Positions 6,086-24,213 of a DNA stretch of 64,000 nucleotides are shown here, piece after piece. Source of the stretch: Lysobacter silvisoli (GTDB taxonomy: Bacteria; Pseudomonadota; Gammaproteobacteria; Xanthomonadales; Xanthomonadaceae). The notes below the pieces were generated by a model, which did no database searches, was not told the origin of the DNA, and saw only the letters and a list, made by a program, of their open reading frames with translations. How positions within the stretch are numbered: position 1 is the stretch's first letter; each line of letters begins with the position of its first letter. The position numbers and the translations under genes were made by a program. The stretch covers positions 1,488,001-1,552,000 of the forward strand of contig NZ_QTSU01000001.1 in assembly GCF_003382365.1 (NCBI RefSeq), given 5' to 3'.

Positions 6086-8302
6086 TTAGAAGTCGTACTT
6101 GACCGACAGCGTGTACTGGCGCGGCGCGCCGTAGAAACCGGTGAACACGCCCAGCGCCGAGTTCAGACTGTAGCCGGTGGTGCGGTATTCCTTGTCGGCC
6201 AGGTTGGTGCCCTGCAGCGACACCGTCCACGGGCCGCCGCTCTTCCAGGTCACGCCGGCGTTGATCAGGCCGTAGCCGTCCTGGGTGATCGGCACCGCGC
6301 CGGTGCGGATGATCTCGGTGGTGGCCACCACTTCGCTCTGGTAGCTGTAGCCCACGCGCGCGGCCAGGTTGCCGCCGCTGGCCAGGTCGGTGCGCCATTC
6401 CACGTTCAGCGCGCCCGAGAATTCCGGCGCGTTGGTGAACTCCTGCTCCTTGGCGATGTTGACGCCGGCGTACATGAACTCGTCGTACTTGGCGTCCAGC
6501 CAGGCCAGGTTGCCCGAGATCAGCCAGTTCGCGCTGGGCAGCCACTGATACTCGACCTCGAAGCCGTTCACCGTGCCCGAACCGGCATTGGTGAAGTCGC
6601 CGAAGAAGGCGTCGTTGGTACCGTCGCCGTTGCTGTCGTAGGCGGTGAACACCGACAGCTGGATGTCCTTGTACTTGTTGTGGAAGTAGGCCAGGTTCAG
6701 GAACAGGGTCTGGTCCAGGAAGGCCATCTTGCTGCCGATCTCGTAGCTGTCCACGACCTCGTCGTCGAACGGCTCGGCCGAGCGCGGCACCGCGGTGGCC
6801 TGGGCGCGGATGTTGTAGCCGCCGGACTTGAAGCCGCGCGTGGCCAGGCCGTACAGCAGGATGTCGGGCGTGATCTGGTAATCCAGCGAGACCTTGGGCG
6901 AGGTGTTCTGGAAGCTGATGCGCTTGTCGAAGTTGGCCGCGACCACGCCGTTGGGGGTGGTGAAGCTGCCGTCGCGGTAGCCGCGGTTGAGCACCTTGGC
7001 GCGCTTGTCCTCGTCGGTGTAGCGCGCGCCCACGTCCAGGGTCAGGCGCTCGGTCAGGTCGAAGGTCCAGTCGGCGTAGGCGGCGATGCTCTTGCTGTAG
7101 ACCGTGCCCTGGGTGTCGCCGAAGGACAGGTTGAAGAAGTTGTTCAGCACCTGGCCGCCGGCCTCGCCGTCGAAGGCATAGATGCCCATCACGCCGCGCG
7201 CGCGGCCGCCGCCGTCGTAGTTGGCCTGCAGCTCGTGGCTGACCTGCTGGTCGCTGTAGAACGCCTTCACGTCGGCGATCTTGTTCTGCAGGGTGTCGAA
7301 GTCGATGTTGGTCTCGGTGTCGGACTCGCGCTTGGCCAGCACATACTTGAACGCCCAGTTCTCGTTGGCGTTCCAGTTCACCGTCGCCGACGCGCCCTTG
7401 ATCGTGGTGTCGTTGACGTTGGGCATGCCGTTGCGCACGTCGTAACGGTCGTCCATCGGCAAGGTGCCGGGGGCGAAGCGGTTGGGCGCCAGCATCTTGG
7501 CGCCGCGCACGCCGGACTGGTCGTCCATCCAGTCGAAGGCGAACTGGATGTTGAGGTCGTCGCTGACGTAGGCGCCGAGCTGGCCGCGCAGGGCCAGGAT
7601 TTCCTTGTCGCTCACGTCCTGGCCGGTGACCACGTTCTTGCCGAAGCCGTCGCGGTTGAGGCTGGCCACGGCGATGCGGCCGCGCAGGCTGTCCTGGCCG
7701 CCGATCGGGCCGCCCACCGCGGCCTTCACGTCGAGCTGGTTGTAGTTGCCCACGGTGACCGAGGCGAAGCCGTCGAACGAGGTGGGCAGGCCGCGCGAGA
7801 TGTACTTGATCGCGCCGCCGATGGTGTTCTTGCCGTACAGCGTGCCTTGCGGGCCGCGCAGCACTTCGATGCGGTCCACGTCGAACACGTCCAGCAGCGC
7901 GCCCTGCGGGCGGGCGATGTAGACGTCGTCCATGTAGATGCCCACGCCCGGGTCCACGCCCCACAGCGGATCGGACTGGCCGACGCCGCGGATGTAGGCG
8001 GTGATGGTGCTGCTGGAGCCGCGGGCGGCATAGATGGTCAGGTTGGGCACCTGCGCATCCAGGTCGCTGAGGTCCTCCACGGCCAGGCGGTCCAGCGCCT
8101 CGGGGGTGAACGCGGTGACCGCCACCGGCACTTCCTGCAGGGTTTCCTCGCGCTTGCGCGCGGTGACCGTGACCGAGCCCAGGGTGGTGGCCTGCTCGCC
8201 CTCGGCCGGCGCGGCCTCCTGCGCCCAGGCGGCCGGCGCCAGCAGCGCGCAGGCGATGGCCAGACTGAGGCTGTGGCGGCTCATGGTGGTGCGTGCGATC
8301 AC
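6086..8302 (-). CDS. TonB-dependent outer-membrane receptor (carboxylate/oligomer uptake candidate)
   Basis: 738-residue outer-membrane receptor. The start is set at GTG 8302, which follows GGAGGAG by 7 nt; the next ATG (8284) has no ribosome site. A Sec signal (LAIACALLAPAAWAQ) is followed by the TonB-box-like stretch TTLGSVTVTARKREE. The plug domain has VPVAVTAF, YIRGVGQ, GVGIYMDDVYI and DRIEVLRGPQGTLYG, and the beta-barrel ends in YTLSVKYDF, with the terminal Phe needed for barrel assembly. The gene is divergent from the GntP permease and next to the symporter-kinase. The context suggests import of 3-hydroxybutyrate oligomers or a related acid rather than siderophores, but the substrate cannot be read from the sequence. 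Confidence 0.9.
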   Translation of the reverse strand: MIARTTMSRHSLSLAIACALLAPAAWAQEAAPAEGEQATTLGSVTVTARKREETLQEVPVAVTAFTPEALDRLAVEDLSDLDAQVPNLTIYAARGSSSTITAYIRGVGQSDPLWGVDPGVGIYMDDVYIARPQGALLDVFDVDRIEVLRGPQGTLYGKNTIGGAIKYISRGLPTSFDGFASVTVGNYNQLDVKAAVGGPIGGQDSLRGRIAVASLNRDGFGKNVVTGQDVSDKEILALRGQLGAYVSDDLNIQFAFDWMDDQSGVRGAKMLAPNRFAPGTLPMDDRYDVRNGMPNVNDTTIKGASATVNWNANENWAFKYVLAKRESDTETNIDFDTLQNKIADVKAFYSDQQVSHELQANYDGGGRARGVMGIYAFDGEAGGQVLNNFFNLSFGDTQGTVYSKSIAAYADWTFDLTERLTLDVGARYTDEDKRAKVLNRGYRDGSFTTPNGVVAANFDKRISFQNTSPKVSLDYQITPDILLYGLATRGFKSGGYNIRAQATAVPRSAEPFDDEVVDSYEIGSKMAFLDQTLFLNLAYFHNKYKDIQLSVFTAYDSNGDGTNDAFFGDFTNAGSGTVNGFEVEYQWLPSANWLISGNLAWLDAKYDEFMYAGVNIAKEQEFTNAPEFSGALNVEWRTDLASGGNLAARVGYSYQSEVVATTEIIRTGAVPITQDGYGLINAGVTWKSGGPWTVSLQGTNLADKEYRTTGYSLNSALGVFTGFYGAPRQYTLSVKYDF

Positions 8303-8408
8303 GGTGTTCTCCTCCCCAAGGTGACGCCGGCGGCGCGAACGCAAGCGCGGCGGACGGGCGGTCCCGTCATGGCGCACAGACTAGGAGGCGGCCGCGCGGG
8401 CGGGCAGC

Positions 8409-8422
8409 TGTACCTTCGGACA
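8409..8422. promoter_or_regulatory. Candidate response-regulator binding palindrome (copy 2)
   Basis: The sequence TGTACCTTCGGACA lies in the 297-bp divergent region between the TonB receptor and the GntP permease. Its dyad form, TGTNC-N4-GNACA, matches 11 of 14 bases of the reverse complement of the site at 993-1006. Presence in both divergent promoter regions of the locus suggests a common operator. No clear -35/-10 pair could be assigned around it. Confidence 0.45.
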
Positions 8423-8469
8423 ATGCCCGCCGGCCGCCGGGACGCGGACACTGCGCGCTGCTTGATTCG

Positions 8470-8556
8470 TCGTCCCCGCGCAAGCGGGGATCCAAAGACT
8501 TTCAGAGTCATGCCTGGGTAAAGCCCTGGATTCCCGCCTCCGCGGGAATGACGGGG
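8470..8556. repeat. Dispersed inverted repeat with CCCGCG..CGCGGG ends
   Basis: An element of about 87 bp bounded by GTCCCCGCGCAAGCGGGGAT and TTCCCGCCTCCGCGGGAATG, each a short hairpin. It resembles the ATTCCCGC-type repeats dispersed in many proteobacterial genomes. It lies between the candidate operator at 8409 and the GntP permease start at 8600, so it forms part of the permease leader or promoter region. Confidence 0.55.
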
Positions 8557-8599
8557 GTGAGAGTTCACCGCAATGGCGAGTTATTCAGGGGATCGTTAG

Positions 8600-9997
8600 A
8601 TGGCGTTTTTGATCGTGCTGGCCGCGCTGTGCTTCCTGATGTTCGTGGCCTACCGCGGCTACAGCGTGATCCTGTTCGCGCCGGTGGCGGCGCTGGGCGC
8701 GGTGCTGCTGACCGACCCCAGCCTGGTCGCGCCGATGTTCACCGGCCTGTTCATGGACAAGATGGTCGGCTTCCTCAAGCTGTACTTCCCGGTGTTCCTG
8801 CTCGGCGCGATCTTCGGCAAATTGATCGAACTGTCGGGCTATTCCAAGTCCATCGTCGCCGCCACCATCCGCCTGCTCGGGCGCGAGCGCGCCATGCTGT
8901 CGATCGTGGCGGTATGCGCGCTGCTCACCTACGGCGGCGTGTCGCTGTTCGTGGTGGTGTTCGCGGTTTACCCCTTCGCGGCCGAGCTGTTCCGCCAGAG
9001 CGACATCCCCAAGCGCCTGATCCCCGGCACCATCGCCCTGGGCGCGTTCACCTTCACCATGGACGCGCTGCCGGGCACGCCGCAGATCCAGAACATCATT
9101 CCGGCCTCGTTCTTCGGCACCAACACCTGGGCCGCGCCGTGGCTGGGCACCCTGGGCGGCGTGTTCATCCTGTTCGTCGGCCTGCTCTATCTGAACTGGC
9201 GCCGGCGCAGCGCGCTCAAGGCCGGCGAAGGCTACGGCACCGGCCTGCTCAACGAACCGGCGCCCTACGCCGGCGGCAAGCTGGCCTCGCCGTTGCTGGC
9301 GATCCTGCCGCTGGTGCTGGTGGGCGTGAGCAACAAGCTGTTCACCGCCTGGATTCCCGCGTTCTACGGCAGCAGCCACAGCTTCGACCCGGCGGTGATC
9401 GGCGATGCCGCGCCGGTGGTGCAGGACGTGAGCAAGGTGGCGGCGATCTGGGCGGTGGAAGGCGCGCTGCTGGTCGGCATCGTGTGCGTGCTGGCCTTCG
9501 CCTGGAAGTCGGTGATGACCAGCTTCGCCGAGGGCACCAAGGCCGCGATCGGCGGCGCCCTGCTGGCGGCGATGAACACCGCCTCCGAGTACGGCTTCGG
9601 CGCGGTGATCGCGGCGCTGCCCGGCTTCCTGATCGTGGCCGACGCGCTGGGCGCGATCCCCAATCCGCTGATCAACGAAGCGGTGACGGTGACCGCGCTG
9701 GCCGGCATCACCGGCTCGGCCTCCGGCGGCATGAGCATCGCCCTGGCGGCCATGGCCGACACCTTCATCGCCAACGCCAACGCCGCCGGCATTCCCATGG
9801 AAGTGCTGCACCGCGTGGCGGCGATGGCCTCCGGCGGCATGGACACCCTGCCCCACAACGGCGCGGTCATCACCCTGCTGGCGGTGACCGGCCTGAGCCA
9901 CCGCCAGGCCTATAAGGACATCTTCGCCATCACCCTGGTCAAGACCCTGGCGGTGTTCGTGGTGATCGGCCTGTATTACGCGACTGGGCTGGTTTGA
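8600..9997 (+). CDS. GntP-family permease (probable D-3-hydroxybutyrate permease)
   Basis: 465-residue inner-membrane transporter with about twelve hydrophobic segments, matching the length of GntP-family carboxylate permeases. The start at 8600 follows AGGGGA by 7 nt. Segments such as LTYGGVSLFVVVFAVYPFA, TMDALPGTPQIQNIIP and ASGGMDTLPHNGAVITLL are typical of the family's hydroxybutyrate/gluconate branch. Its place between a TonB receptor and an alpha/beta hydrolase, with the 3HB-oligomer hydrolase family gene 8 kb away, favours 3-hydroxybutyrate as substrate. Gluconate or another hydroxy acid remains possible. It is transcribed divergently from the TonB receptor and is probably under the same regulator. 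Confidence 0.87.
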   Translation: MAFLIVLAALCFLMFVAYRGYSVILFAPVAALGAVLLTDPSLVAPMFTGLFMDKMVGFLKLYFPVFLLGAIFGKLIELSGYSKSIVAATIRLLGRERAMLSIVAVCALLTYGGVSLFVVVFAVYPFAAELFRQSDIPKRLIPGTIALGAFTFTMDALPGTPQIQNIIPASFFGTNTWAAPWLGTLGGVFILFVGLLYLNWRRRSALKAGEGYGTGLLNEPAPYAGGKLASPLLAILPLVLVGVSNKLFTAWIPAFYGSSHSFDPAVIGDAAPVVQDVSKVAAIWAVEGALLVGIVCVLAFAWKSVMTSFAEGTKAAIGGALLAAMNTASEYGFGAVIAALPGFLIVADALGAIPNPLINEAVTVTALAGITGSASGGMSIALAAMADTFIANANAAGIPMEVLHRVAAMASGGMDTLPHNGAVITLLAVTGLSHRQAYKDIFAITLVKTLAVFVVIGLYYATGLV

Positions 9998-14890: not shown

Positions 14891-15505
14891 ATGAGCTTTT
14901 CGCCCACGACGTTCATCGCCGCCCTGTTCCTGGCGCTGGCCGCGCATGCGGGCGATGCGCGTGCCGCCAGCGCGGCCTGCGAACTCGACGTGTACGCCAA
15001 GGACACCGATCCGAAAGGCTTGAACGTCCGCTCCGGCCCGTCGATCAACGCTCCCGTCGTCGCGACCCTGCCCGGATGGAATCCGCCGGGGCCCGACGAC
15101 GAACTCGAAGGACATCTGCCGGTCGGCTTCACCATCGTCGAGGCGCGCGACGGCTGGGTCCGCATCGCCGACGTCTCGATCCCCGACCCGGCCACCGGCG
15201 CCCATCGCGCGTCGCCCATCCGCGGCTGGGTCAGCGGCAAGAGGGTCGGCTACAACTTGCAGACCGAGGTCGGTTTCCAGAATCCCGATCCGAGCAGCCC
15301 GGCGCTGATCCAGCAGGACGGCGGGATCGTGCTGACCGACGCGATCGGCATCAGCGGCTGCACCGGGGAATGGGCCCGGATCGACTACGGCGATCCACGC
15401 TCGCCCAAGCGCGCCTGGTTCCGCGGCTTGTGCGGTCTGATCGAGACCACTTGCGATGGCCGCAACGGCGACGAGAGCCGGGGTGAGGACGCCGACGCAC
15501 GTTAA
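14891..15505 (+). CDS. Secreted SH3-domain protein
   Basis: 204 residues; the ATG at 14891 follows GGAGG by 9 nt. A signal peptide covers about the first 26 residues (SPTTFIAALFLALAAHAGDARA). A bacterial SH3-like domain follows: LNVRSGPSINAPVVATLPG, FTIVEARDGWVRIADV, IRGWVSGKRVGY. A second, weaker copy may lie in the C-terminal half (GISGCTGEWARIDYG and RAWFRGLCGLIETTC). Such domains often bind cell-wall peptides in periplasmic or extracellular proteins. No enzyme domain is attached. Confidence 0.75.
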   Translation: MSFSPTTFIAALFLALAAHAGDARAASAACELDVYAKDTDPKGLNVRSGPSINAPVVATLPGWNPPGPDDELEGHLPVGFTIVEARDGWVRIADVSIPDPATGAHRASPIRGWVSGKRVGYNLQTEVGFQNPDPSSPALIQQDGGIVLTDAIGISGCTGEWARIDYGDPRSPKRAWFRGLCGLIETTCDGRNGDESRGEDADAR

Positions 15506-15522
15506 CCACGACTCTCACAAGC

Positions 15523-15690
15523 TTAGGAGTTACCTAAGAGCAGGGCACCGGAAACGTCGCGCGCCGACGGGTCACCAGACGCTTCGCCGAGGCAGTTGAC
15601 GGGCATGTTGGTGTTGGCAATCGTGGCGGCGAACGACTGGCGCTTGTCGGTGCGCGCGGGAGCGGGCGTAGCCGGATACTCCAGCGCTGA
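15523..15690 (-). pseudogene. Possible gene remnant (coding-like fragment)
   Basis: The 341-bp gap between the SH3-domain gene and the adhesin-like gene has no intact gene. On the minus strand a 55-codon stretch bounded by stops has strongly GC-biased third positions and reads protein-like (SFAATIANTNMPVNCLGEAS, DPSARDVSGALLLGNS). It has no start codon or ribosome site. It may be the C-terminal stub of a lost gene; no family is recognised. Confidence 0.25.
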
Positions 15691-15778
15691 CTAGCGACAA
15701 AGTGACACGGCACTCGCTTCACCGGACATCTAGCTAGCTCGCAGCCGCCGGCTGCTATGTTCCGATGCATTCCAACTC

Positions 15779-15814
15779 AAAAGCGAAGAGCGGACCGAAG
15801 CCCGCTCCTCGCTT
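15779..15814 (-). terminator. Terminator hairpin after the GEVED/DUF11 gene
   Basis: Read on the minus strand, an AAGCGAGGAGCGG stem pairs with CCGCTCTTCGCTT and is followed by TTTT, 33 nt past the stop at 15847. Its core resembles the pnp terminator at 22051-22079 (GCGGGC-TTCG loop), consistent with a shared origin of the two adhesin units. Confidence 0.6.
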
Positions 15815-15846
15815 CCAGACGTTGAGCGTATAACGATGAGCGCCGT

Positions 15847-18800
15847 CTACTGCACGGCGCAATTGAAGCTGAACGTCGCCGTCGCTCCGGCTGCCAACGC
15901 GCCTAAGACCACTCCGGCGGCCAGATCGCCCACGGTGATGGCCCCTCCCGGGCACGCCACGCCGGAGCACGTCACCACGTTGCCAGCCGGACAATTTAGT
16001 CCAGCCTGCGGTGCGTCGCGCACCACCGCACCTATCACCGCTTGGGCACCATGATTGCTCACAACTACGGTATACGCCGTGCTCGCCCCTGCGGTCACCG
16101 TGTCGTCCGTCTGATCGCTAGGGCCAGCGCCTGGCGTGTTGGTCTTGGTGATCGACAAATCCGTGGTACGTAGCGTGTTCGTGTACGTGCATACCGCCGG
16201 GTTCGTGCTGTTGATGGTCAGCGTATTCGTCTGCTGACCGTCCGTGCCTGACAGCGCATGGCCGCCCGTGCAGCCGACGGTCGTGGTGTAGTTCACGGCA
16301 TTGGCACCGCCCTCCGCTGGCAGCGTGATCGTGTTCCCGATCGTTACCACCACTGCTGCTCCGCTGTCCGCCACCGTGGGCGCAGTGGCGGTAAATGCCT
16401 CGGTGTTGTTGGTGCCGCCGGAGCTGGCGCCGATGGTGACTTGATTGCCGGCCAGGCTACCCGCCGCCCAGGCCTTGGCCAGCTGCAACGTGCTGGTACG
16501 CAGGGCGTTGGTGTACGTGCACGTAACCAAAGCGTCCGCGGCCAGCGTGCTGGGTAGAACGACGGTATTGCCCGAGGCCTGACCGTTCGTTCCCGATAGC
16601 GTTGCTCCGTTGTCGCAGGCCAAGGTGGTGGTGTAGTTGGCCAGAGTCCCCACCGTCATGGTTTCTGCGGGCAAAGTGGCGGTTTCCGCCGCGCCCACTA
16701 TGACCTCTGCGCCGTTCGTCGCCGCCGGCGCGGCGGCGGTGAACGGCACCGTATTCGTACTGAGTCCAACGGTGGCTTCAAGACGGGCGACATCGCCCGC
16801 GATAGCGCTAGTCCAAGCCTTGGCCAAGCGGAAACGCACTCGCCGGGTGTTGGTATAGGTGCACACCGCCAAGCTGTCGGAGGGCACCGTTACTGTAAAG
16901 TTGACCGAGGTGGACGTGACCGTCCCCGCTGTTACCGTCAACGGACTGTTGTCGGTGTTCTTTACGCAAGACAGGGCACTAACATAGTTAGCGGTTGTGC
17001 CGTTGGTGAAGGTCTCGGTCAGGGTCGCGGTACCGCCGGTGGTAGCGAAAGAATCCCGCGCCACCGTAGTGGCTCCGCCTGCAGTAGATGAGCCAGCGGT
17101 GATGTCGGTACCTCCGCCAATCGTCAACGTCACTGCATTGGGGCTGATCCCACTCTGCCATATCTTGGTCAAACTGACTGTAGGCAGCAAATTGACTTGA
17201 TAGTCCTCTACCTCACCGTTTGCCGCGTTGCCTGCCGCGCTCGCGATTTCGGAGGAGGAACGCGCCAGACGAAAGCGGGCAAAACCAACTCCCGGCACGG
17301 CAGTATTTGGCACGGTGAAACTGAGGTTGACCGTCTGTATCGCGCCCGTATTAGCCGCCACGACAGTCGCGGCAAGCGACTCCCCTGTATCGAGAAAGTC
17401 TCCGTCGCGGTTGAAGTCCAGAAATCCGGTTAAGAATGCATTCTCGCCAGTTGTGTTGGTGACCGTTACCGGGATGGCAATGATTTGCCCCGGCGTCAGC
17501 ACGATATTGGGAATCGCAGTGGCTCGGGTATCGTCGGCATCGCCGGTGGCGGTGCCATTTTGCAGGGCGTCGGCCTCATTGGTGGCGGCACCGCCGAGAT
17601 AAAGGCCGCCCACCAAGGTGTGGCGCGGACCGCCGTCAGCCGAGAGGGTCTGGTAGTTGTTCTGGGAAGTGCCTGAGGCGGTGTCGGGCGCGTCGCCGAA
17701 ATCACGTGGGCAGCCCGCTTCCAGCAAAGGAGCAACCGTGATGTCGTCAATCGCGAAATCGTTGTTGTTGAACGACGTGGTGAGATTCCTGACTTCGACG
17801 GTGTAGGAACCTGCGGCGGTGGCCGTGAAATCGACCGTTGCCTGCGTCCAATCGGCCGGACCCGTCCAGGCAGCGCCTGAGAACCTGAAGGGAATGGCAC
17901 CGGTCTGCCCCGTTGCAATGACCGTTCCGCCCGGTGTCAGGACGCGTATTTCGAGGTTCGGCCTCTCACCGGGGGCGTTGGAATTGTATCCAGCAAGATT
18001 AACCGCGTTTACTGCGAACATGCTTAAACGATACTGCTGCCCAGCGACGAGAATGACGGATTGACGATAGAACATCCCAACCGTGAGTGCTCCGTTAACC
18101 GCCAGATAGGCATCGTTGTCGCTGCCATCAGTGTGCCCGAACAAGTTTTGCCAGTGATATCCGGACGGCAACCAATTGGCGGAGTATGCCTTGCCGAAAA
18201 CCGCGTACTGAGCGGCGGCTGTATTCGAACCCCCTGCGTAAGAGTAGCCTCCCGCCGTGGCTGGAATCTGGAGGTCGCGGAAAGAAGCTGTTGCACCGAA
18301 GCTGCCACCGAACTCGGCGGTATTGAGATTACCGCAGGTCGTATTGGGCACGGGTGTGACCTGGGCTGCGACCGGCAAGACGCAGGTCAAAGACGAGAGC
18401 ATGGCGGCAACGATACGCGCACGCACTATTCGACTGTCGACATGCCAAGACGCCGTGCGCGCTCCCCGGCCCGAAATCTCTAGCGCTTGCCGACCGTAGG
18501 ACCGAAGTTCTCCATATCCTGCGGCTTTGAATTTCACCCGATTCAAATGCACTGCAGCGCGAGGCGCCACTCGATGTCGTAGCCGTTCGATCAGTGTGCG
18601 CGCCCTTATGAAAAAGCCCAGCCGAATAGAGCGTTCTTCGGTATCGCGCAAGCGCCGGAGTTGCGTCGGCACTTGACTCAAGCCCAGCGCATACCCGTCC
18701 GCTTTGGCCATTCCGACCCCGGTGTTCGACGTCGCCATCCGCGACGAGGATGCCAAACGGGAAGAATCGATCGCCGTCCGCGCTTGCGCCGATCGCGACA

Positions 18801-19065
18801 AGGCCATGAGACTCGCGGATATGGCTGCCACCGCAGCCCCACGATTCGGGCCTTGGGCAACCATCGAGTCGCGAGTTGCGCGACTGCCGGGGCGCACCGA
18901 CAGCTCCGCCGAGCCGGGCGCCAGGAGCCATGAAGCCGCGCCGGCAACCCAGCCTTCGGCGGCAGCGAGCCTATCGCGTAGAGCAGCCGTATCGGCCGCG
19001 ACCGGCGTCACCGCGCCGCACTGCAGCACCGGCTGCGGCCGGCGGCGAACCAAAGAAGAACCCAT
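15847..19065 (-). CDS. Large secreted adhesin-like protein: GEVED, three prealbumin-like repeats, DUF11
   Basis: The reading frame is clear but the start is not. ATG 19065 follows GGGGTGG and lies at nearly the same offset from the upstream terminator as the start of the paralogue at 21951, giving 1072 residues. That puts about 210 low-complexity, weakly coding residues before the apparent Sec signal (RARIVAAMLSSLTCVLPVAAQ), so a GTG at 18426 (859 residues) is an alternative. After the signal come a ligand-binding-like domain (GGSYTVEVRNLT-type end; DFAIDDITV), a GEVED domain (FLDFNRDGDFLDTGES to NGEVEDYQVNLL), three prealbumin-like repeats each ending CTYTN, and a C-terminal DUF11 domain (LSITKTNTPGAGPSDQTDDT) ending TFSFNCAVQ. 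It is presumably exported. GC is lower than in neighbouring genes. Confidence 0.72.
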   Translation of the reverse strand: MGSSLVRRRPQPVLQCGAVTPVAADTAALRDRLAAAEGWVAGAASWLLAPGSAELSVRPGSRATRDSMVAQGPNRGAAVAAISASLMALSRSAQARTAIDSSRLASSSRMATSNTGVGMAKADGYALGLSQVPTQLRRLRDTEERSIRLGFFIRARTLIERLRHRVAPRAAVHLNRVKFKAAGYGELRSYGRQALEISGRGARTASWHVDSRIVRARIVAAMLSSLTCVLPVAAQVTPVPNTTCGNLNTAEFGGSFGATASFRDLQIPATAGGYSYAGGSNTAAAQYAVFGKAYSANWLPSGYHWQNLFGHTDGSDNDAYLAVNGALTVGMFYRQSVILVAGQQYRLSMFAVNAVNLAGYNSNAPGERPNLEIRVLTPGGTVIATGQTGAIPFRFSGAAWTGPADWTQATVDFTATAAGSYTVEVRNLTTSFNNNDFAIDDITVAPLLEAGCPRDFGDAPDTASGTSQNNYQTLSADGGPRHTLVGGLYLGGAATNEADALQNGTATGDADDTRATAIPNIVLTPGQIIAIPVTVTNTTGENAFLTGFLDFNRDGDFLDTGESLAATVVAANTGAIQTVNLSFTVPNTAVPGVGFARFRLARSSSEIASAAGNAANGEVEDYQVNLLPTVSLTKIWQSGISPNAVTLTIGGGTDITAGSSTAGGATTVARDSFATTGGTATLTETFTNGTTANYVSALSCVKNTDNSPLTVTAGTVTSTSVNFTVTVPSDSLAVCTYTNTRRVRFRLAKAWTSAIAGDVARLEATVGLSTNTVPFTAAAPAATNGAEVIVGAAETATLPAETMTVGTLANYTTTLACDNGATLSGTNGQASGNTVVLPSTLAADALVTCTYTNALRTSTLQLAKAWAAGSLAGNQVTIGASSGGTNNTEAFTATAPTVADSGAAVVVTIGNTITLPAEGGANAVNYTTTVGCTGGHALSGTDGQQTNTLTINSTNPAVCTYTNTLRTTDLSITKTNTPGAGPSDQTDDTVTAGASTAYTVVVSNHGAQAVIGAVVRDAPQAGLNCPAGNVVTCSGVACPGGAITVGDLAAGVVLGALAAGATATFSFNCAVQ

Positions 19066-19156
19066 CGAACCACCCCTGAGCCGGCCGAAATGGCCGGACT
19101 TGGGTAAGACAATCTCCCTTTGGCGGTCAAACCGGACATCCCGGCAGGTCTCGGAC

Positions 19157-19188
19157 AAAAAAAAAAGCGGGCCGAAGCCCGCTTTTTC
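19157..19188 (-). terminator. Duplicated pnp terminator
   Basis: AGCGGGC-TTCG-GCCCGCT hairpin with a T-run on the minus strand. It is the second copy of the authentic pnp terminator at 22051-22079 and follows the truncated pnp copy. Confidence 0.75.
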
Positions 19189-19213
19189 GTGTAGCTGCGA
19201 TGTCGTCCGGCGC

Positions 19214-19490
19214 TTACTCGGCCGAGACGCCCTCGCCTTCTTCCACGGCCTTCATCGACAGGCGGATGCGGCCCTGCTTGTCGACTTCCAGCACCTTGAC
19301 CTTGACCACGTCGCCTTCCTTGAGCTTGTCGCTGACCTTCTCGACGCGCTCGTTGGAGATCTGCGAGACGTGGACCAGACCGTCCTTGCCCGGCAGGATC
19401 GTCACGAAGGCGCGGAAGTCCTCTTGGTGACCTTCTTCATAGATGCGACGATTCGACGTCGGATATGAGCTGACAAGCGCGCCTTGGCCT
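19214..19490 (-). pseudogene. Truncated second copy of pnp 3' end (S1 domain)
   Basis: The last 65-70 codons of pnp are repeated here. From 19167 to 19413 the DNA equals the true pnp tail and terminator (22058-22304) except for two bases between stop codon and terminator. Further upstream, about 19414-19490, similarity to pnp continues but is much weaker, with small indels: [14 protein letters not shown] here against [16 protein letters not shown] in pnp. The encoded piece is the RNA-binding S1 domain ([20 protein letters not shown] and on to EEGEGVSAE) without the catalytic domains or a start codon with ribosome site. It lies between the two adhesin-like genes and marks the boundary of a duplicated or inserted unit. 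Confidence 0.88.
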
Positions 19491-19590
19491 GCTCGGACGC
19501 GAGGGGTGCACCGCCTTCCAGTCTTTCACCCATTGGCGAATACGGCACCTGCTCTGCGTCGCCCCACATTTTTGGGTATCGTTCGAAACG

Positions 19591-21951
19591 TCAGTTCACC
19601 GTACATTGGAAGCTCAACGTGGCGCTCTGCCCACTGTTGAGCGTGCCCAGGGTGATGCCCGCTCCGGTCAGATTGGACACCGTAAATGTGCTCGCTGGCA
19701 CGCCGCTACCGGTGATGGTCACAGCATTTCCCGCAGGACAGGTGATGCCCGCGCCGGGCGCGTCGCGCACCACCGCGCCAGCGACCGTCGCCGGTCCGTT
19801 GTTGGTGACACGCAACTGGTAGACCGTGGCTGCGCCGCGGACCACGGTGTCGTTGGCGCCATCGCTGGGACCGTCAACCGGGGTATTGGTTTTGGTGATC
19901 AGCAGGTCGCTGCCGTTTGCATTGGTGAAAGTGCAGGTGAAATCCGTGCCGCCGACCACGTCGGCAGCTGCGATGGTGTAGATGGTTCCGCGCAGCGAGC
20001 CGACCGTGGCGCTGCCATTCGAGCAGGTCGCATTGGCGACCGAATAGCCGTTGGGCATGGCGTTCTCGTCGATGGTCACCGCCACGCCCGCGGCGACGAT
20101 GCCGAACGCTTGCACTCCGGCCACGGCATTGCCGTCGACCTGGACCGTACCCCCGGCAGGTGTGGTCGCCGTACCACTGGTCTGGCCGGTGTTGGTCAGG
20201 CCGAAGGTGAACGGTCCCCGGGCTGCGGCCGGAGTGACCGTCTTGTTCAGGGTCAAGCAGCCTGGGTCGGCGAATGCGGTGGCGCTGTTGTTGGCGGTGC
20301 CGCCCGGCGTCGGGGTGACGAAACCCGACTGCGCGGACGTGCCTTCCTGCAGCGTGGTGCCGTTTAGGGTGATGGTGGAGGTGTTGGGCGCTGCCGTGCA
20401 CTGCGCGATCGCGAGCGTGGCGGTGACGGTATAGGTGAGGCTGGCGCCCGCCGCGCCAGCCGTGCCGGCAGGCAGGCTGACGTTGGTGGCGTTGATGGCC
20501 CCCGCGCCGCTGGCGGCGGGACAGACCGCGCCGCCGGCCGCCGCGCAGGTCCACGCGAACGCGGTGTACCCCGCCTGTAAGGGATCGGTCAGGGTCGCGA
20601 TGAGATCGTGCGCCGTGAGATCGGCGGCCGTGCCGACGGTGGGACGAGCGGCGTTGTTCTGGTACACCACCGTAAAGGTGGCCGTTCCGCCCGGTGGCGG
20701 ATTGGCGTTGACGGCGACCTTGGTGGTTGCCACATCAACATCGTTGTCGACGATGGTGACCACGCCCGCGCCGCCCACGACCGCGCCGCAAGTCTGGGTG
20801 GAGCCCACCACGTAGGCGCCTGCGCGCGAGACCATGCGCAGATCGATGGTTTCGTTGTTCTCGATCACCGTGTCGTTGTTGACCGTGACCAAGTTGGTCA
20901 GGGTGATCGTGGTGGGTGTTTCGTAGCGACCTGCCGGGATGGTCACGGTGTTAATGGTGTAATCGATGCCCTGGGTGGCGGTGGCCGCGGCATCGTTGAT
21001 GAAGTCCAGCACCAGGCCGCCGGCGGGTACGGTGCCGACGACGATGATCTGCGGGCTCAAGGTGTTCGCCGCCGCGCCCTCGCCGCGGGTGCCGGCGATG
21101 CTACCGGTGAATTGGATCACCGGCGACAGGAGGATGTCCACATCGTCGAGGAAGTTGCCTGAACTGCCGCCATTGGCGGTCTGAAAGCCAAGGTTGTGCG
21201 CTCCGGACGTCCCGCCGTACACGAAAGTGCCGGTGTAGCGGCGCCAACCGTTCGTGGAGGTCGCTGTACTGCAGGTCGCCGACTGCACCAGACCTTCGCT
21301 GGCCCCGCTCACAGTCCCAGACTGCGGCGATGCGAAGGCGGTGCCGCCGCAACTCGTGGTGCCGCCCGCGCCCGTGGTGGTCGTGCTCATGGCGACGACC
21401 GTGTTGCTGGTGCTGTCGACATTGAACTCGGCCGTATCGCCGGTCGCTGCGCTGTTGCGCCCACGATGCAAAAAGCTGTAACCGACCTGCTCGCCTTGAA
21501 ACAGGCAGACATCCTGCGACAAGCGCCCATCGCTCCAGGCGTTGAGTTCGGAGAACTGGGTGCCTGCCCCTGCGCTGACGCCGGCGAAGGCGGTGTTCCA
21601 GATTTCGATCACTCCCAGTCCGGTTCCCGGGTTGCCGTTGAAACAGTTGTTAGGCGGGCCACTGCCAGGGAAGGCATTGCTCTGGTTGGGCTCGCTGGTT
21701 TTCCAGCCCTGCACGTCCTGCGCGCGCGTGATGATGAAGCAATTGGGGTTCACGTCGACCGTCTGCGGCGGCTCAAAACCCAGGTTGCGAAAACTACGCT
21801 GGATCTGCGCCACCGCCGGCATGGCCGCCAGTAGCAGTATCAGCGCCAGCAACCAACGCCCGGCCGGCAGGCCCAAGGGACTGCCTTGAACGGCGACCGA
21901 TGCGCGGGCGCGTCGACGACGGCTCGCGGTCAATTTAGATGGAAAGTTCAT
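19591..21951 (-). CDS. Large secreted adhesin-like protein: Calx-beta and DUF11 domains
   Basis: 786 residues from ATG 21951. An Arg-rich n-region (ASRRRRARAS) and a Sec signal (GRWLLALILLLAAMPAVAQ, cleavage after residue 48) show export. An N-terminal ligand-binding-like domain (about 50-285, RSFRNLGFEPPQTVD, FLDDVDILLSP) is followed by a Calx-beta-like domain (about 285-405, DYTINTVTIPAG and NDTVIENNETIDL), a DUF11 domain (to about 563), a prealbumin-like domain (FTCTFTNANG) and a second DUF11 domain (LLITKTNTPVDGPSDGANDT) ending TLSFQCTVN. The last 100 residues are clearly paralogous to the end of the 15847-19065 protein, while the N-terminal halves differ. No sorting signal or autotransporter barrel is seen, so the export route is unknown. 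Confidence 0.83.
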   Translation of the reverse strand: MNFPSKLTASRRRRARASVAVQGSPLGLPAGRWLLALILLLAAMPAVAQIQRSFRNLGFEPPQTVDVNPNCFIITRAQDVQGWKTSEPNQSNAFPGSGPPNNCFNGNPGTGLGVIEIWNTAFAGVSAGAGTQFSELNAWSDGRLSQDVCLFQGEQVGYSFLHRGRNSAATGDTAEFNVDSTSNTVVAMSTTTTGAGGTTSCGGTAFASPQSGTVSGASEGLVQSATCSTATSTNGWRRYTGTFVYGGTSGAHNLGFQTANGGSSGNFLDDVDILLSPVIQFTGSIAGTRGEGAAANTLSPQIIVVGTVPAGGLVLDFINDAAATATQGIDYTINTVTIPAGRYETPTTITLTNLVTVNNDTVIENNETIDLRMVSRAGAYVVGSTQTCGAVVGGAGVVTIVDNDVDVATTKVAVNANPPPGGTATFTVVYQNNAARPTVGTAADLTAHDLIATLTDPLQAGYTAFAWTCAAAGGAVCPAASGAGAINATNVSLPAGTAGAAGASLTYTVTATLAIAQCTAAPNTSTITLNGTTLQEGTSAQSGFVTPTPGGTANNSATAFADPGCLTLNKTVTPAAARGPFTFGLTNTGQTSGTATTPAGGTVQVDGNAVAGVQAFGIVAAGVAVTIDENAMPNGYSVANATCSNGSATVGSLRGTIYTIAAADVVGGTDFTCTFTNANGSDLLITKTNTPVDGPSDGANDTVVRGAATVYQLRVTNNGPATVAGAVVRDAPGAGITCPAGNAVTITGSGVPASTFTVSNLTGAGITLGTLNSGQSATLSFQCTVN

Positions 21952-22050
21952 CAAAGCCGCGCCCCCGCAGCGGTGAGATGATTGGCCTTAGAAAAATTAA
22001 TCTCCATTCGGCAGGTAAACCGGACATCGGCGAGGCGAAAAGAGAGGCAC

Positions 22051-22079
22051 AAAAAAAGCGGGCCGAAGCCCGCTTTTTC
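22051..22079 (-). terminator. pnp terminator
   Basis: On the minus strand AGCGGGC-TTCG-GCCCGCT is followed by TTTTTTT, 26 nt past the pnp stop. It separates the operon from the downstream adhesin gene; the hairpin is symmetrical and may act in both directions. Confidence 0.85.
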
Positions 22080-22104
22080 GTGTAGCTGCGATGTCGCCCG
22101 GCGA

Positions 22105-24213
22105 TTACTCGGCCGAGACGCCCTCGCCTTCTTCCACGGCCTTCATCGACAGGCGGATGCGGCCCTGCTTGTCGACTTCCAGCACCTTGACCTTGACCAC
22201 GTCGCCTTCCTTGAGCTTGTCGCTGACCTTCTCGACGCGCTCGTTGGAGATCTGCGAGACGTGGACCAGACCGTCCTTGCCCGGCAGGATCGTCACGAAG
22301 GCGCCGAAGTCCATGATCTTGGCGACCTTGCCTTCGTAGATGCGGCCCGGCTCGACGTCGGACACGATCTGGTCGATGCGCGCCTTGGCGGCCTGCGCGG
22401 CGGCGGCGTTGACCGAGGCGATGACGATGGTGCCGTCGTCCTGGATGTCGATCTGGGTGCCGGTTTCCTTGGTGATGGCCTGGATGGTCGAACCGCCCTT
22501 GCCGATCACTTCGCGGATCTTGTCCGGGTGGATCTTCATGGTCAGCAGGCGCGGCGCGTACTCGCTCAGCTCACCGCGCGGCGCGGTGATGGCGTTGGCC
22601 ATCTCGCCCAGGATGTGCAGGCGGCCGGCCTTGGCCTGGCCCAGCGCGACCTTCATGATCTCTTCGGTGATGCCCTGGATCTTGATGTCCATCTGCAGCG
22701 CCGAGATGCCTTCCGAGGTGCCGGCGACCTTGAAGTCCATGTCGCCCAGGTGATCCTCGTCGCCCAGGATGTCGGACAGGACGACGAAGTTGTCGCCTTC
22801 CTTGACCAGGCCCATTGCGATACCGGCGACCGGCGCCTTGATCGGCACGCCGGCATCCATCAGCGCCAGCGAGCTGCCGCAGACCGAGGCCATCGAGGAC
22901 GAGCCGTTGGACTCGGTGATTTCCGAGACCACGCGGATGGTGTAGGGGAACTCTTCCATGGTCGGCATCACGGCCAGCACGCCGCGCTTGGCCAGACGGC
23001 CGTGGCCGATTTCGCGGCGCTTCGGACCCATCATGCGGCCGGCTTCGCCGACCGAGAAGGGCGGGAAGTTGTAATGGAACAGGAAGTGTTCCTTGTACTC
23101 GCCGGAGACGGCGTCGATGATCTGACCGTCGCGGGCGGTGCCCAGGGTGGCTACCACTATCGCCTGGGTCTCGCCGCGGGTGAACAGCGAGGAGCCGTGG
23201 GTGCGCGGCAGCACGCCGACCTTGGAGGCGATCGGGCGCACGGTGTCCAGGGCGCGGCCGTCGATGCGGACCTTGGTGGTCAGCACCGAGTTGCGCATGG
23301 TCTGGTACTCGAGCTCGCCGAATTCCTTGGACAGCTCGGCGGTGGCCCAGCCCTCGGCTTCGGCGCGGCCGGCCAGACGCTGCAGCACGTCCTTCTTGAT
23401 CGCGCCGATGGCGTCGCGGCGCTGCAGCTTGTCGCGCACCTGGAAGGCGGCGGCGAGCTGGTCGCCCACGGCTTCCTTGAGCGCGCCGATCAGGGCGTCG
23501 TTCTTGGCCGGAGCTTCCCAGGTCGAGGCCTTGGTGCCGGCTTCGACGACCAGCTCGTTGATGATGTTGATGACCTTCTGCATTTCGCGATGGCCGAACA
23601 TCACCGCGCCGAGCATGACGTCCTCGGACAGCATCTTGGCTTCGGATTCGACCATCAGCACGGCATTGGAGGTGCCGGCGACGACCAGTTCCAGTTCGGA
23701 ATCGGCCAGCTCGCTCACGGTCGGGTTCAGCAGGTACTGGCCGTTCTTGTAGCCGACCTTGGCCGCGCCGATCGGGCCCTGGAACGGGGTGCCGGCCAGC
23801 GCCATGGCGGCCGAGGCGCCGATCAGCGCCGGGATGTCGCCGTCGACTTCCGGATTCATCGACATCACGGTGGCGATGATCTGGACTTCGTTCTTGTAGT
23901 CCTCGGGGAACAGCGGACGGATCGGGCGATCGATCAGACGCGAGATCAGCGTCTCCTTCTCGGTCGCGCGGCCCTCACGCTTGAAGAAGCCGCCCGGGAT
24001 GCGGCCGCCGGCGTAGAACTTCTCCTGGTAATCGACGGTGAGCGGGAAGAAATCCTGCCCCTCGCGCGCGCTCTTGGCGGCGACGGCGGTCACCAGCAGT
24101 ACGGTGTCGTCCATCTTGACGATCACGGCGCCGCTGGCCTGGCGCGCGATCTCGCCGGTCTCCAGCGTTACCTGGTGGTTGCCGTACTGGAAGGTCTTGG
24201 TAATTTTTGCCAC
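22105..24213 (-). CDS. pnp: Polyribonucleotide nucleotidyltransferase (PNPase)
   Basis: 702 residues, the usual length for 3'-5' phosphorolytic exoribonuclease PNPase, a trimeric RNA-decay enzyme and degradosome partner. The start is GTG 24213 with AAGGAA upstream, giving the standard N-terminus [20 protein letters not shown]. Seen: two RNase PH domains with [26 protein letters not shown] and [17 protein letters not shown], then a KH domain ([20 protein letters not shown]) and an S1 domain ([20 protein letters not shown]). It follows rpsO, with a hairpin between them. Its 3' end is duplicated 2.9 kb downstream. Confidence 0.98.

What the first reader, a model, noticed from the sequence alone, without database searches (positions are those of the whole stretch)
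19161..24213. Adhesin-like cassette at the pnp 3' end with a near-identical second copy of the pnp tail and terminator
On the minus strand the order is pnp, terminator, adhesin B, pnp tail copy, terminator copy, adhesin A. The 247 bp of tail and terminator (19167-19413 against 22058-22304) differ by only two bases. The adhesins themselves are strongly diverged, and the next 75 bp of pnp-like sequence is also diverged and carries indels. Simple old tandem duplication does not explain this. It fits import of a foreign pnp-tail-plus-adhesin unit that recombined with the resident pnp, leaving both alleles in tandem, or ongoing gene conversion. The pnp tail may be an integration hot spot for surface-protein cassettes.
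Basis: partly seen in the sequence, partly recalled or inferred. Interest (0 to 1): 0.78.

Follow-up and report, generated by a model that had tools for sequence, protein, structure and literature searches.

The report
Adhesin array recombining at pnp tail
In these bacteria a changing set of surface-protein genes sits right after a housekeeping gene, and copies of that gene's tail found between the surface-protein genes look like points where the array has recombined.

Summary
On the minus strand the last 193 coding bases, stop and terminator of pnp recur 2.9 kb downstream with 2 substitutions in 247, beside 77 bp of decayed pnp (57/77, indels), between two strongly diverged adhesin-like genes.

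It is not unique. Of 20 genomes of the genus, 12 carry 1-4 DUF11/SpaA-type adhesin genes behind pnp and 8 none; 0 of 60 fetched genomes from other genera do. Clear pnp-tail copies lie between tandem adhesins in 3 of 6 multi-adhesin genomes and were not found in the other 74 genomes examined. The longest copy in each of the three is closest to its own genome's pnp; two very short ones cannot be placed.

Best explanation: the pnp 3' end is the shared left end of a variable adhesin locus. Different pnp-adhesin units came to lie in tandem, displaced tails decay, and homologous exchange with an intact pnp tail rewrote the right-hand 247 bp here. No recombinase gene was found in the insert. Foreign import of the pnp end is only hinted at (AU p = 0.079).

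The parts
22105..24213 (-). pnp (polynucleotide phosphorylase), intact, 702 codons plus stop, GTG start; left border of the adhesin locus
   Evidence: whole gene closest to G013
22058..22304 (-). resident pnp tail and terminator: the intact copy of the 247-bp near-identical segment
22000..22026 (-). leader element of adhesin B, TGTCCGG-N16-AGAT, promoter-like
19591..21951 (-). adhesin-like gene B: SpaA_4 and DUF11 domains; residues 50-689 of its longest frame 65.7% identical (648 aligned) to the third adhesin of G015
19414..19499 (-). decayed pnp fragment with indels, left flank of the tail copy (57/77 over the 77 bp next to the copy)
19167..19413 (-). second pnp tail and terminator, 2 substitutions in 247 against the resident; no intact gene in front of it
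19161..19188 (-). terminator hairpin of the copy, 12-pair stem (6 G-C) with a T run; its 36-nt core is the same as the resident one (fold z-score -3.46)
19112..19138 (-). leader element of adhesin A, TGTCCGG-N16-AGAT
15847..19065 (-). adhesin-like gene A: GEVED domain above cut-off, SpaA-type domains below cut-off, C-terminus similar to the other adhesins
15501..22047 (.). extent of the adhesin region relative to sister genomes; in G018 and G012 the terminator and the conserved flank lie about 60-77 bp apart

Best explanation
The stretch behind pnp, up to a neighbour that is conserved within each clade, is a variable adhesin locus of this genus. An adhesin unit is: pnp 3' end and terminator, leader, adhesin gene. 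Two units with different adhesins ended up in tandem, so that the tail of a second pnp, cut off from its gene, was trapped between the adhesins. The trapped tail decayed. It later recombined with an intact pnp tail, either the resident one (gene conversion) or that of an incoming chromosome of the same species (a crossover that also delivers a new downstream adhesin). This rewrote the right-hand 247 bp and left the decayed 77-86 bp to its left untouched. Shown: the anatomy, the sharp change of divergence, the own-genome affinity of the longest copies, the empty and differently filled sites in relatives, and homogenised 3' ends with unlike 5' parts in three other arrays. Inferred: the exchange event, its partner, and that the 262-bp repeat lets adhesin B be lost or exchanged without harm to pnp.
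For: Copy 245/247 against flank 57/77. Empty sites: G018, G012 and G011 have no adhesin behind pnp; G018 and G012 are colinear with the window on both sides of the insert; G013 holds one different adhesin there. 12 of 20 genus genomes have 1-4 adhesins at this place, 0 of 60 fetched outside. Clear tail copies in 3 of 6 multi-adhesin genomes, against 0 of 14 other genus genomes (p = 0.018) and 0 of 74 in all (p = 0.0002). The longest copy is closest to its own pnp in three species. Within the arrays of G015, G014 and G009 the last 330 bp of the adhesins are 81-96% identical while the first 600 bp (starts set by hand) are 58-66%, near one shuffled control (60%). Parts of single adhesins have different nearest relatives.
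Against: In the window the two adhesin C-termini are not homogenised (65% DNA), nor are those of G019 and G010 (60-61%). In G015 the fresh tail copy lies to the right of an older decayed fragment that is not colinear with it, so that copy is not a simple in-place conversion. In G009, G019 and G010 the tandem adhesins have no detectable tail copy between them, nor do adhesins 3 and 4 of G014. The two shortest copies (G014c2, G015c1) score marginally best against another genome's pnp. The G014 arrangement (two similar spacers) also fits duplication of a whole unit. Only three genomes carry clear copies. No strain-level data.
Confidence: 0.6

Rival explanations
1. Import from another species: a foreign pnp-tail-plus-adhesin unit recombined into the resident pnp, and both alleles remain in tandem.
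For: The resident pnp 3' end, identical in the copy over the coding part, has no difference from G017 between pnp positions 1992 and 2126 (limits chosen after seeing the data), while sister G013 has 7; the body is closest to G013. The tail tree places G000 and the copy with G017 and G019 (78/95, not starred). Adhesins are absent at this site in G018, G012 and G011.
Against: The copy is not foreign relative to the resident (245/247). The AU test does not reject the sister clade (p = 0.079). The decayed flank has no foreign affinity. In G014 and G015 the longest copies are closest to their own pnp.
Confidence: 0.15
2. Tandem duplication inside the genome of the unit pnp-tail-to-adhesin, recent for the tail, with the adhesin afterwards replaced or reshuffled; no conversion of the tail.
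For: The unit structure fits (clear copies always lie between two adhesins); in G014 two units share similar spacers.
Against: A recent duplication would leave the 77-bp flank as identical as the 247 bp; it is not (p = 6e-12). The first 600 bp of the two adhesins are near the shuffled control.
Confidence: 0.15
3. Site-specific insertion of a mobile element into the 3' end of pnp, with the tail copy as the displaced gene end.
For: Duplicated gene 3' end beside an insert; integrase-bearing elements lie next to pnpA in Dichelobacter nodosus (PMC2593044, passages seen).
Against: No recombinase domain: the two adhesin genes gave none and ten other, overlapping frames of the insert gave no Pfam hit. 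The longest copies begin at different pnp positions: -296 in G000, -141 in G015, -46 in G014. In D. nodosus the targets are tRNA genes.
Confidence: 0.05
4. Assembly artefact.
For: The genome is in 7 contigs and the repeat is longer than typical short reads (recalled; read type unknown).
Against: The copies have distinct flanks and a decayed segment that an assembler cannot invent; similar anatomy in G015 and G014.
Confidence: 0.03

Closest known systems
Fibrillar-adhesin-like surface proteins (DUF11, SpaA-type stalk domains)
   Same: DUF11 and SpaA_4 domains; PMC9210967 (passages seen) calls DUF11 a stalk domain.
   Different: No known adhesive domain found among the Pfam hits; no adhesion function tested. 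SpaA and GEVED do not occur in that paper's text.
Integrated elements next to pnpA and csrA in Dichelobacter nodosus (intA-intD)
   Same: Variable DNA accumulates next to pnp; tandem integrations are mentioned there (PMC2593044, passages seen).
   Different: Those elements carry integrases and use tRNA-Ser genes; here no recombinase was found and the tail of pnp itself is duplicated.
Recombining cassette arrays of surface or secreted proteins (vls of Lyme Borrelia; Neisseria Maf loci)
   Same: Conserved segments flank variable cores, and arrays change by homologous exchange (PMC11499132 and PMC4287609: listing and start of abstract; the Maf detail is recalled).
   Different: Here each window adhesin is a full gene with its own leader, not a silent cassette, and the shared segment is the end of an unrelated housekeeping gene.
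Genomic islands that duplicate the 3' end of their target gene (recalled)
   Same: A partial gene 3' end remains beside the insert.
   Different: The repeat is 262 bp with variable left ends across species, no common att core and no recombinase found.

Membership tests
Integrase-driven genomic island at a gene 3' end | Integrase or other recombinase gene in the insert | tested here: not met
   Two adhesin genes without such a domain; ten other frames of 100 aa or more in the insert without any Pfam hit at E 0.01; a few further overlapping frames were not scanned
Integrase-driven genomic island at a gene 3' end | Fixed short att core at both ends | tested here: not met
   The longest tail copies start at pnp -296, -141 and -46 in G000, G015 and G014; a short common core elsewhere was not sought
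Gene-conversion array (concerted evolution of a repeat) | Repeat copies more alike within a genome than between genomes | tested here: met
   G000 245/247 against at best 234/247; G015 93.3% own against 87.5%; G014 95.1% own against 93.2%. Two shortest copies: another genome marginally first, not decisive
Gene-conversion array (concerted evolution of a repeat) | Abrupt change of identity inside a homologous stretch | tested here: met
   247 bp with 2 differences beside 77 bp with 20; seen in the window only, not in G015
Silent-cassette antigenic variation system | One expressed locus plus silent partial copies of the same gene | tested here: not met
   Both window adhesins are full open frames, each with terminator and leader element in front; expression not testable
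Fibrillar-adhesin-like proteins | Stalk-type domains such as DUF11 or SpaA | tested here: met
   Adhesin B: SpaA_4 9e-14 and DUF11 1e-5, both above cut-off; adhesin A: GEVED above cut-off, SpaA_4 and SpaA_3 below cut-off
Fibrillar-adhesin-like proteins | Known adhesive domain or shown binding | tested here: inconclusive
   No adhesive domain among Pfam hits at E 0.01; binding not testable

The most novel reading that the evidence does not exclude
The pnp 3' end is a maintained recombination platform: trapped tail copies, kept fresh by exchange with the housekeeping gene, let whole adhesin genes be gained, lost or reordered by ordinary homologous recombination while pnp always stays intact, giving a reversible adhesin repertoire without a dedicated recombinase.
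Probability: 0.25. Interest if true: 0.65.

Novelty: new variant of a known kind. Interest (0 to 1): 0.5.

Why it matters
It shows a surface-protein locus whose shared recombination segment is the end of an unrelated, conserved housekeeping gene. If such tails really serve as exchange points, they explain how these bacteria change surface proteins without a dedicated recombinase, and give a simple signature (gene-tail copies between paralogues) by which similar loci can be sought elsewhere.

Tried and rejected
Foreign origin of the copy was tested by identity to 20 pnp tails and by a tail tree: not supported for the copy, undecided for the shared 3' end. Site-specific insertion was rejected. 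Selection on the copy was rejected as the cause of identity (inference): a conserved terminator would explain some 40 bp, not 193 identical former coding bases; in G015 the 11 coding substitutions of the copy fall on all three codon positions (2, 4, 5), as in decay.

'Clear' copy means E below 1e-8 against the own pnp and a score above every shuffle; the second copy of G015 (65) and of G014 (80) pass. The control searches (reverse strand, pnp body) reach 5e-6 and 2e-5. Not counted: a pnp-like fragment behind the only adhesin of G003 (E 5e-6, the level of the best control, but score 50 against at most 33 in shuffles) and of G004 (E 0.01; 41 against 35), perhaps one old remnant; repeats of the terminator hairpin alone in G139 (E 5e-6); and a hit in G037 (E 4e-8) that lies in an open frame reading like the S1 domain of another protein (judged by eye).

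The leader element TGTCC-N18-[AC]GAT was noticed by eye, so its count of 13 of 21 leaders (30 matches in 794,510 bases of both strands, these included) is partly circular. Among later adhesins it is present in 3 of 5 with a tail copy in front and 0 of 4 without, not significant (p = 0.17). Genome-wide in the genus it has 68 matches against 28 for the reversed control, 14 of the 68 at the pnp locus. Of 41 other sites read, 2 precede an adhesin-like gene by blastp; 13 were not read. A site in the window's own genome lies about 118 bp behind an adhesin-like gene, but the frames after it show no similarity to the adhesins; I had first taken it for a third adhesin and withdraw that. Whether the element is a promoter or a regulator site is open; the sigma-70 scan found none there. 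A first, narrower pattern missed the window's own two copies.

The terminator scan listed the hairpin of the copy but not the resident one, and its total (2) was below its shuffles (3.3); the hairpin rests on the fold and on conservation.

Among the papers listed (capped lists) I saw none on adhesin genes or duplicated tails at pnp in Lysobacter; one search found no paper. This covers the held open-access library only.

Genomes used: 20 of the genus; 60 of the other 151 family genomes, chosen by hand for spread; three of the 60 had less than 11 kb downstream (2.6, 8.7 and 9.7 kb). Adhesin calling used blastp E <= 1e-8 within 11 kb; two distal adhesins cut by that limit (G014 fourth, G015 third) were added.

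Full report
What is there. The minus strand holds an intact pnp (22105-24213), its terminator, an adhesin-like gene B (19591-21951), a decayed pnp fragment, a nearly perfect second pnp tail and terminator (19167-19413), and adhesin-like gene A (15847-19065). The repeat was found independently as 19160-19421 against 22051-22312, 262 nt at 99%. In the alignment the last 193 coding bases are identical, the next 54 bases differ at two sites, and the 77 bases to the left match at 57 with several indels. The difference between the two segments is far outside chance for one common age (p = 6e-12). Behind the terminators the leaders are still related (70% over 54 nt), so the similar unit includes tail, terminator and leader. 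The first 600 bp of the two adhesins are near the level of a shuffled control (64% against 60% of aligned bases).

Proteins. Adhesin B has SpaA_4 and DUF11 domains above cut-off; adhesin A has a GEVED domain above cut-off and SpaA-type hits below cut-off. Neither shows a known adhesive domain. 'Adhesin-like' is a fair label, not a tested function. Ten other frames of the insert gave no Pfam hit.

The locus in relatives. I fetched the region downstream of pnp from the 20 genomes of the genus that the search returned. Equal contig lengths suggest that several are Lysobacter (G014 = sp. ISL-50, G010 = sp. Root690, G005 = L. enzymogenes ATCC 29487, G017 = sp. yr284, G018 = sp. cf310; inferred). 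Twelve have adhesin genes behind pnp: six have one, four have two, G015 has three and G014 has four; eight have none by this test. Of 60 fetched genomes from other genera of the family none has one within the stretch read. The sisters G018 and G012 show the empty site: terminator and next conserved region lie about 60-77 bp apart, while in the window 6.5 kb lies between; G013 has a different single adhesin there.

Tail copies elsewhere. Searching each genome's downstream region with its own pnp end gives clear copies in G000 (score 560), G015 (333 and 65) and G014 (182 and 80), against at most 43 in any shuffle; each lies between two adhesins. The longest start at different pnp positions (-296, -141, -46), which argues against a fixed integration core. 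The longest copy is closest to the pnp of its own genome: 245/247 here, 93.3% against 87.5% in G015, 95.1% against 93.2% in G014. The two shortest copies score marginally better with another genome's pnp and cannot be placed. The other three multi-adhesin genomes (G009, G019, G010) have no detectable copy. G003 and G004 have a possible old fragment.

Ends alike, cores unlike. Within the arrays of G015, G014 and G009 the last 330 bp of the adhesins are 94-96%, 81-91% and 93% identical, while the first 600 bp are at 58-66%. A tree of the C-terminal domains groups the adhesins of G015 (97/97) and, less firmly, those of G009 (87/90). Adhesin B of the window has its C-terminus, on a long branch, with the group of G014, G009, G003, G004 and G010 (100/99), yet residues 50-689 at 65.7% identity to the third adhesin of G015. 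Parts of adhesins have therefore been recombined between lineages and, in some arrays, homogenised at their ends. In the window and in G019 and G010 the C-termini are not homogenised.

Mechanism. One homologous exchange between a decayed, trapped tail and an intact pnp tail explains the window best: it leaves the decayed 77-86 bp on the left, makes the right part pristine, and, if it was a crossover with another chromosome, brings in the downstream adhesin A. Plain gene conversion from the resident pnp gives the same sequence, and I cannot tell the two apart from one genome. An import from a relative is hinted at by the pnp 3' end shared by both copies: between pnp positions 1992 and 2126 there is no difference from G017 but 7 from the sister G013, although the body of the gene is closest to G013 (limits set after seeing the data). 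The tail tree agrees (78/95), but the AU test does not reject the sister clade (p = 0.079), so this step stays open.

Consequence (inference). A 262-bp repeat at 99% flanking adhesin B should allow its loss or duplication by ordinary recombination, with pnp always left complete. This would make the pnp tail a recombination platform. It is untested.

Leader element. In 13 of 21 adhesin leaders of the array a TGTCC-N18-GAT-type element is present. It also lies in front of an adhesin-like gene at another place in G009 and in G014, 2 of 41 other sites read. It may be a shared promoter or regulator site; it was found by eye and needs an independent test.

Verdict.

Noticed in passing
window 19112-19138 and 22000-22026 (minus strand); L172 and L181 at 200 from the upstream end: A TGTCC-N18-AGAT/CGAT element with fixed spacing in front of adhesin genes at the pnp locus and of an adhesin-like gene elsewhere in G009 and G014; possible shared promoter or regulator site.
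   Followed up: partly
L158 and L176 (G003, G010); L162 and L166 (G005, G006): The same element lies upstream of a frame that reads like a LuxR-type response regulator in two genomes and like a polysaccharide-synthesis protein in two others (judged by eye from translations, no family search).
   Followed up: no
L152 1614-3869 (minus) and 6537-8630 (plus), own genome, contig C3: A second locus with two adhesin-like genes; no long direct repeat of a gene tail there. The leader element lies about 118 bp behind the second gene, but what follows it does not resemble the adhesins.
   Followed up: partly
L052 (G015), behind the stop of its second adhesin: An older decayed pnp fragment (14-58 bases behind the stop) lies left of the fresh tail copy (from about 98 bases) and is not colinear with it, suggesting at least two successive events.
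   Followed up: partly
L038 (G014), spacers behind adhesins 1 and 2: The two inter-adhesin spacers, each ending in a pnp tail copy, are similar to each other, as after duplication of a whole unit.
   Followed up: partly
window 15501-15846 (minus strand): Behind adhesin A there is another terminator-like hairpin and a further TGTCCGG, perhaps the remnant of a third unit; the match to the pnp terminator was not above shuffles.
   Followed up: partly
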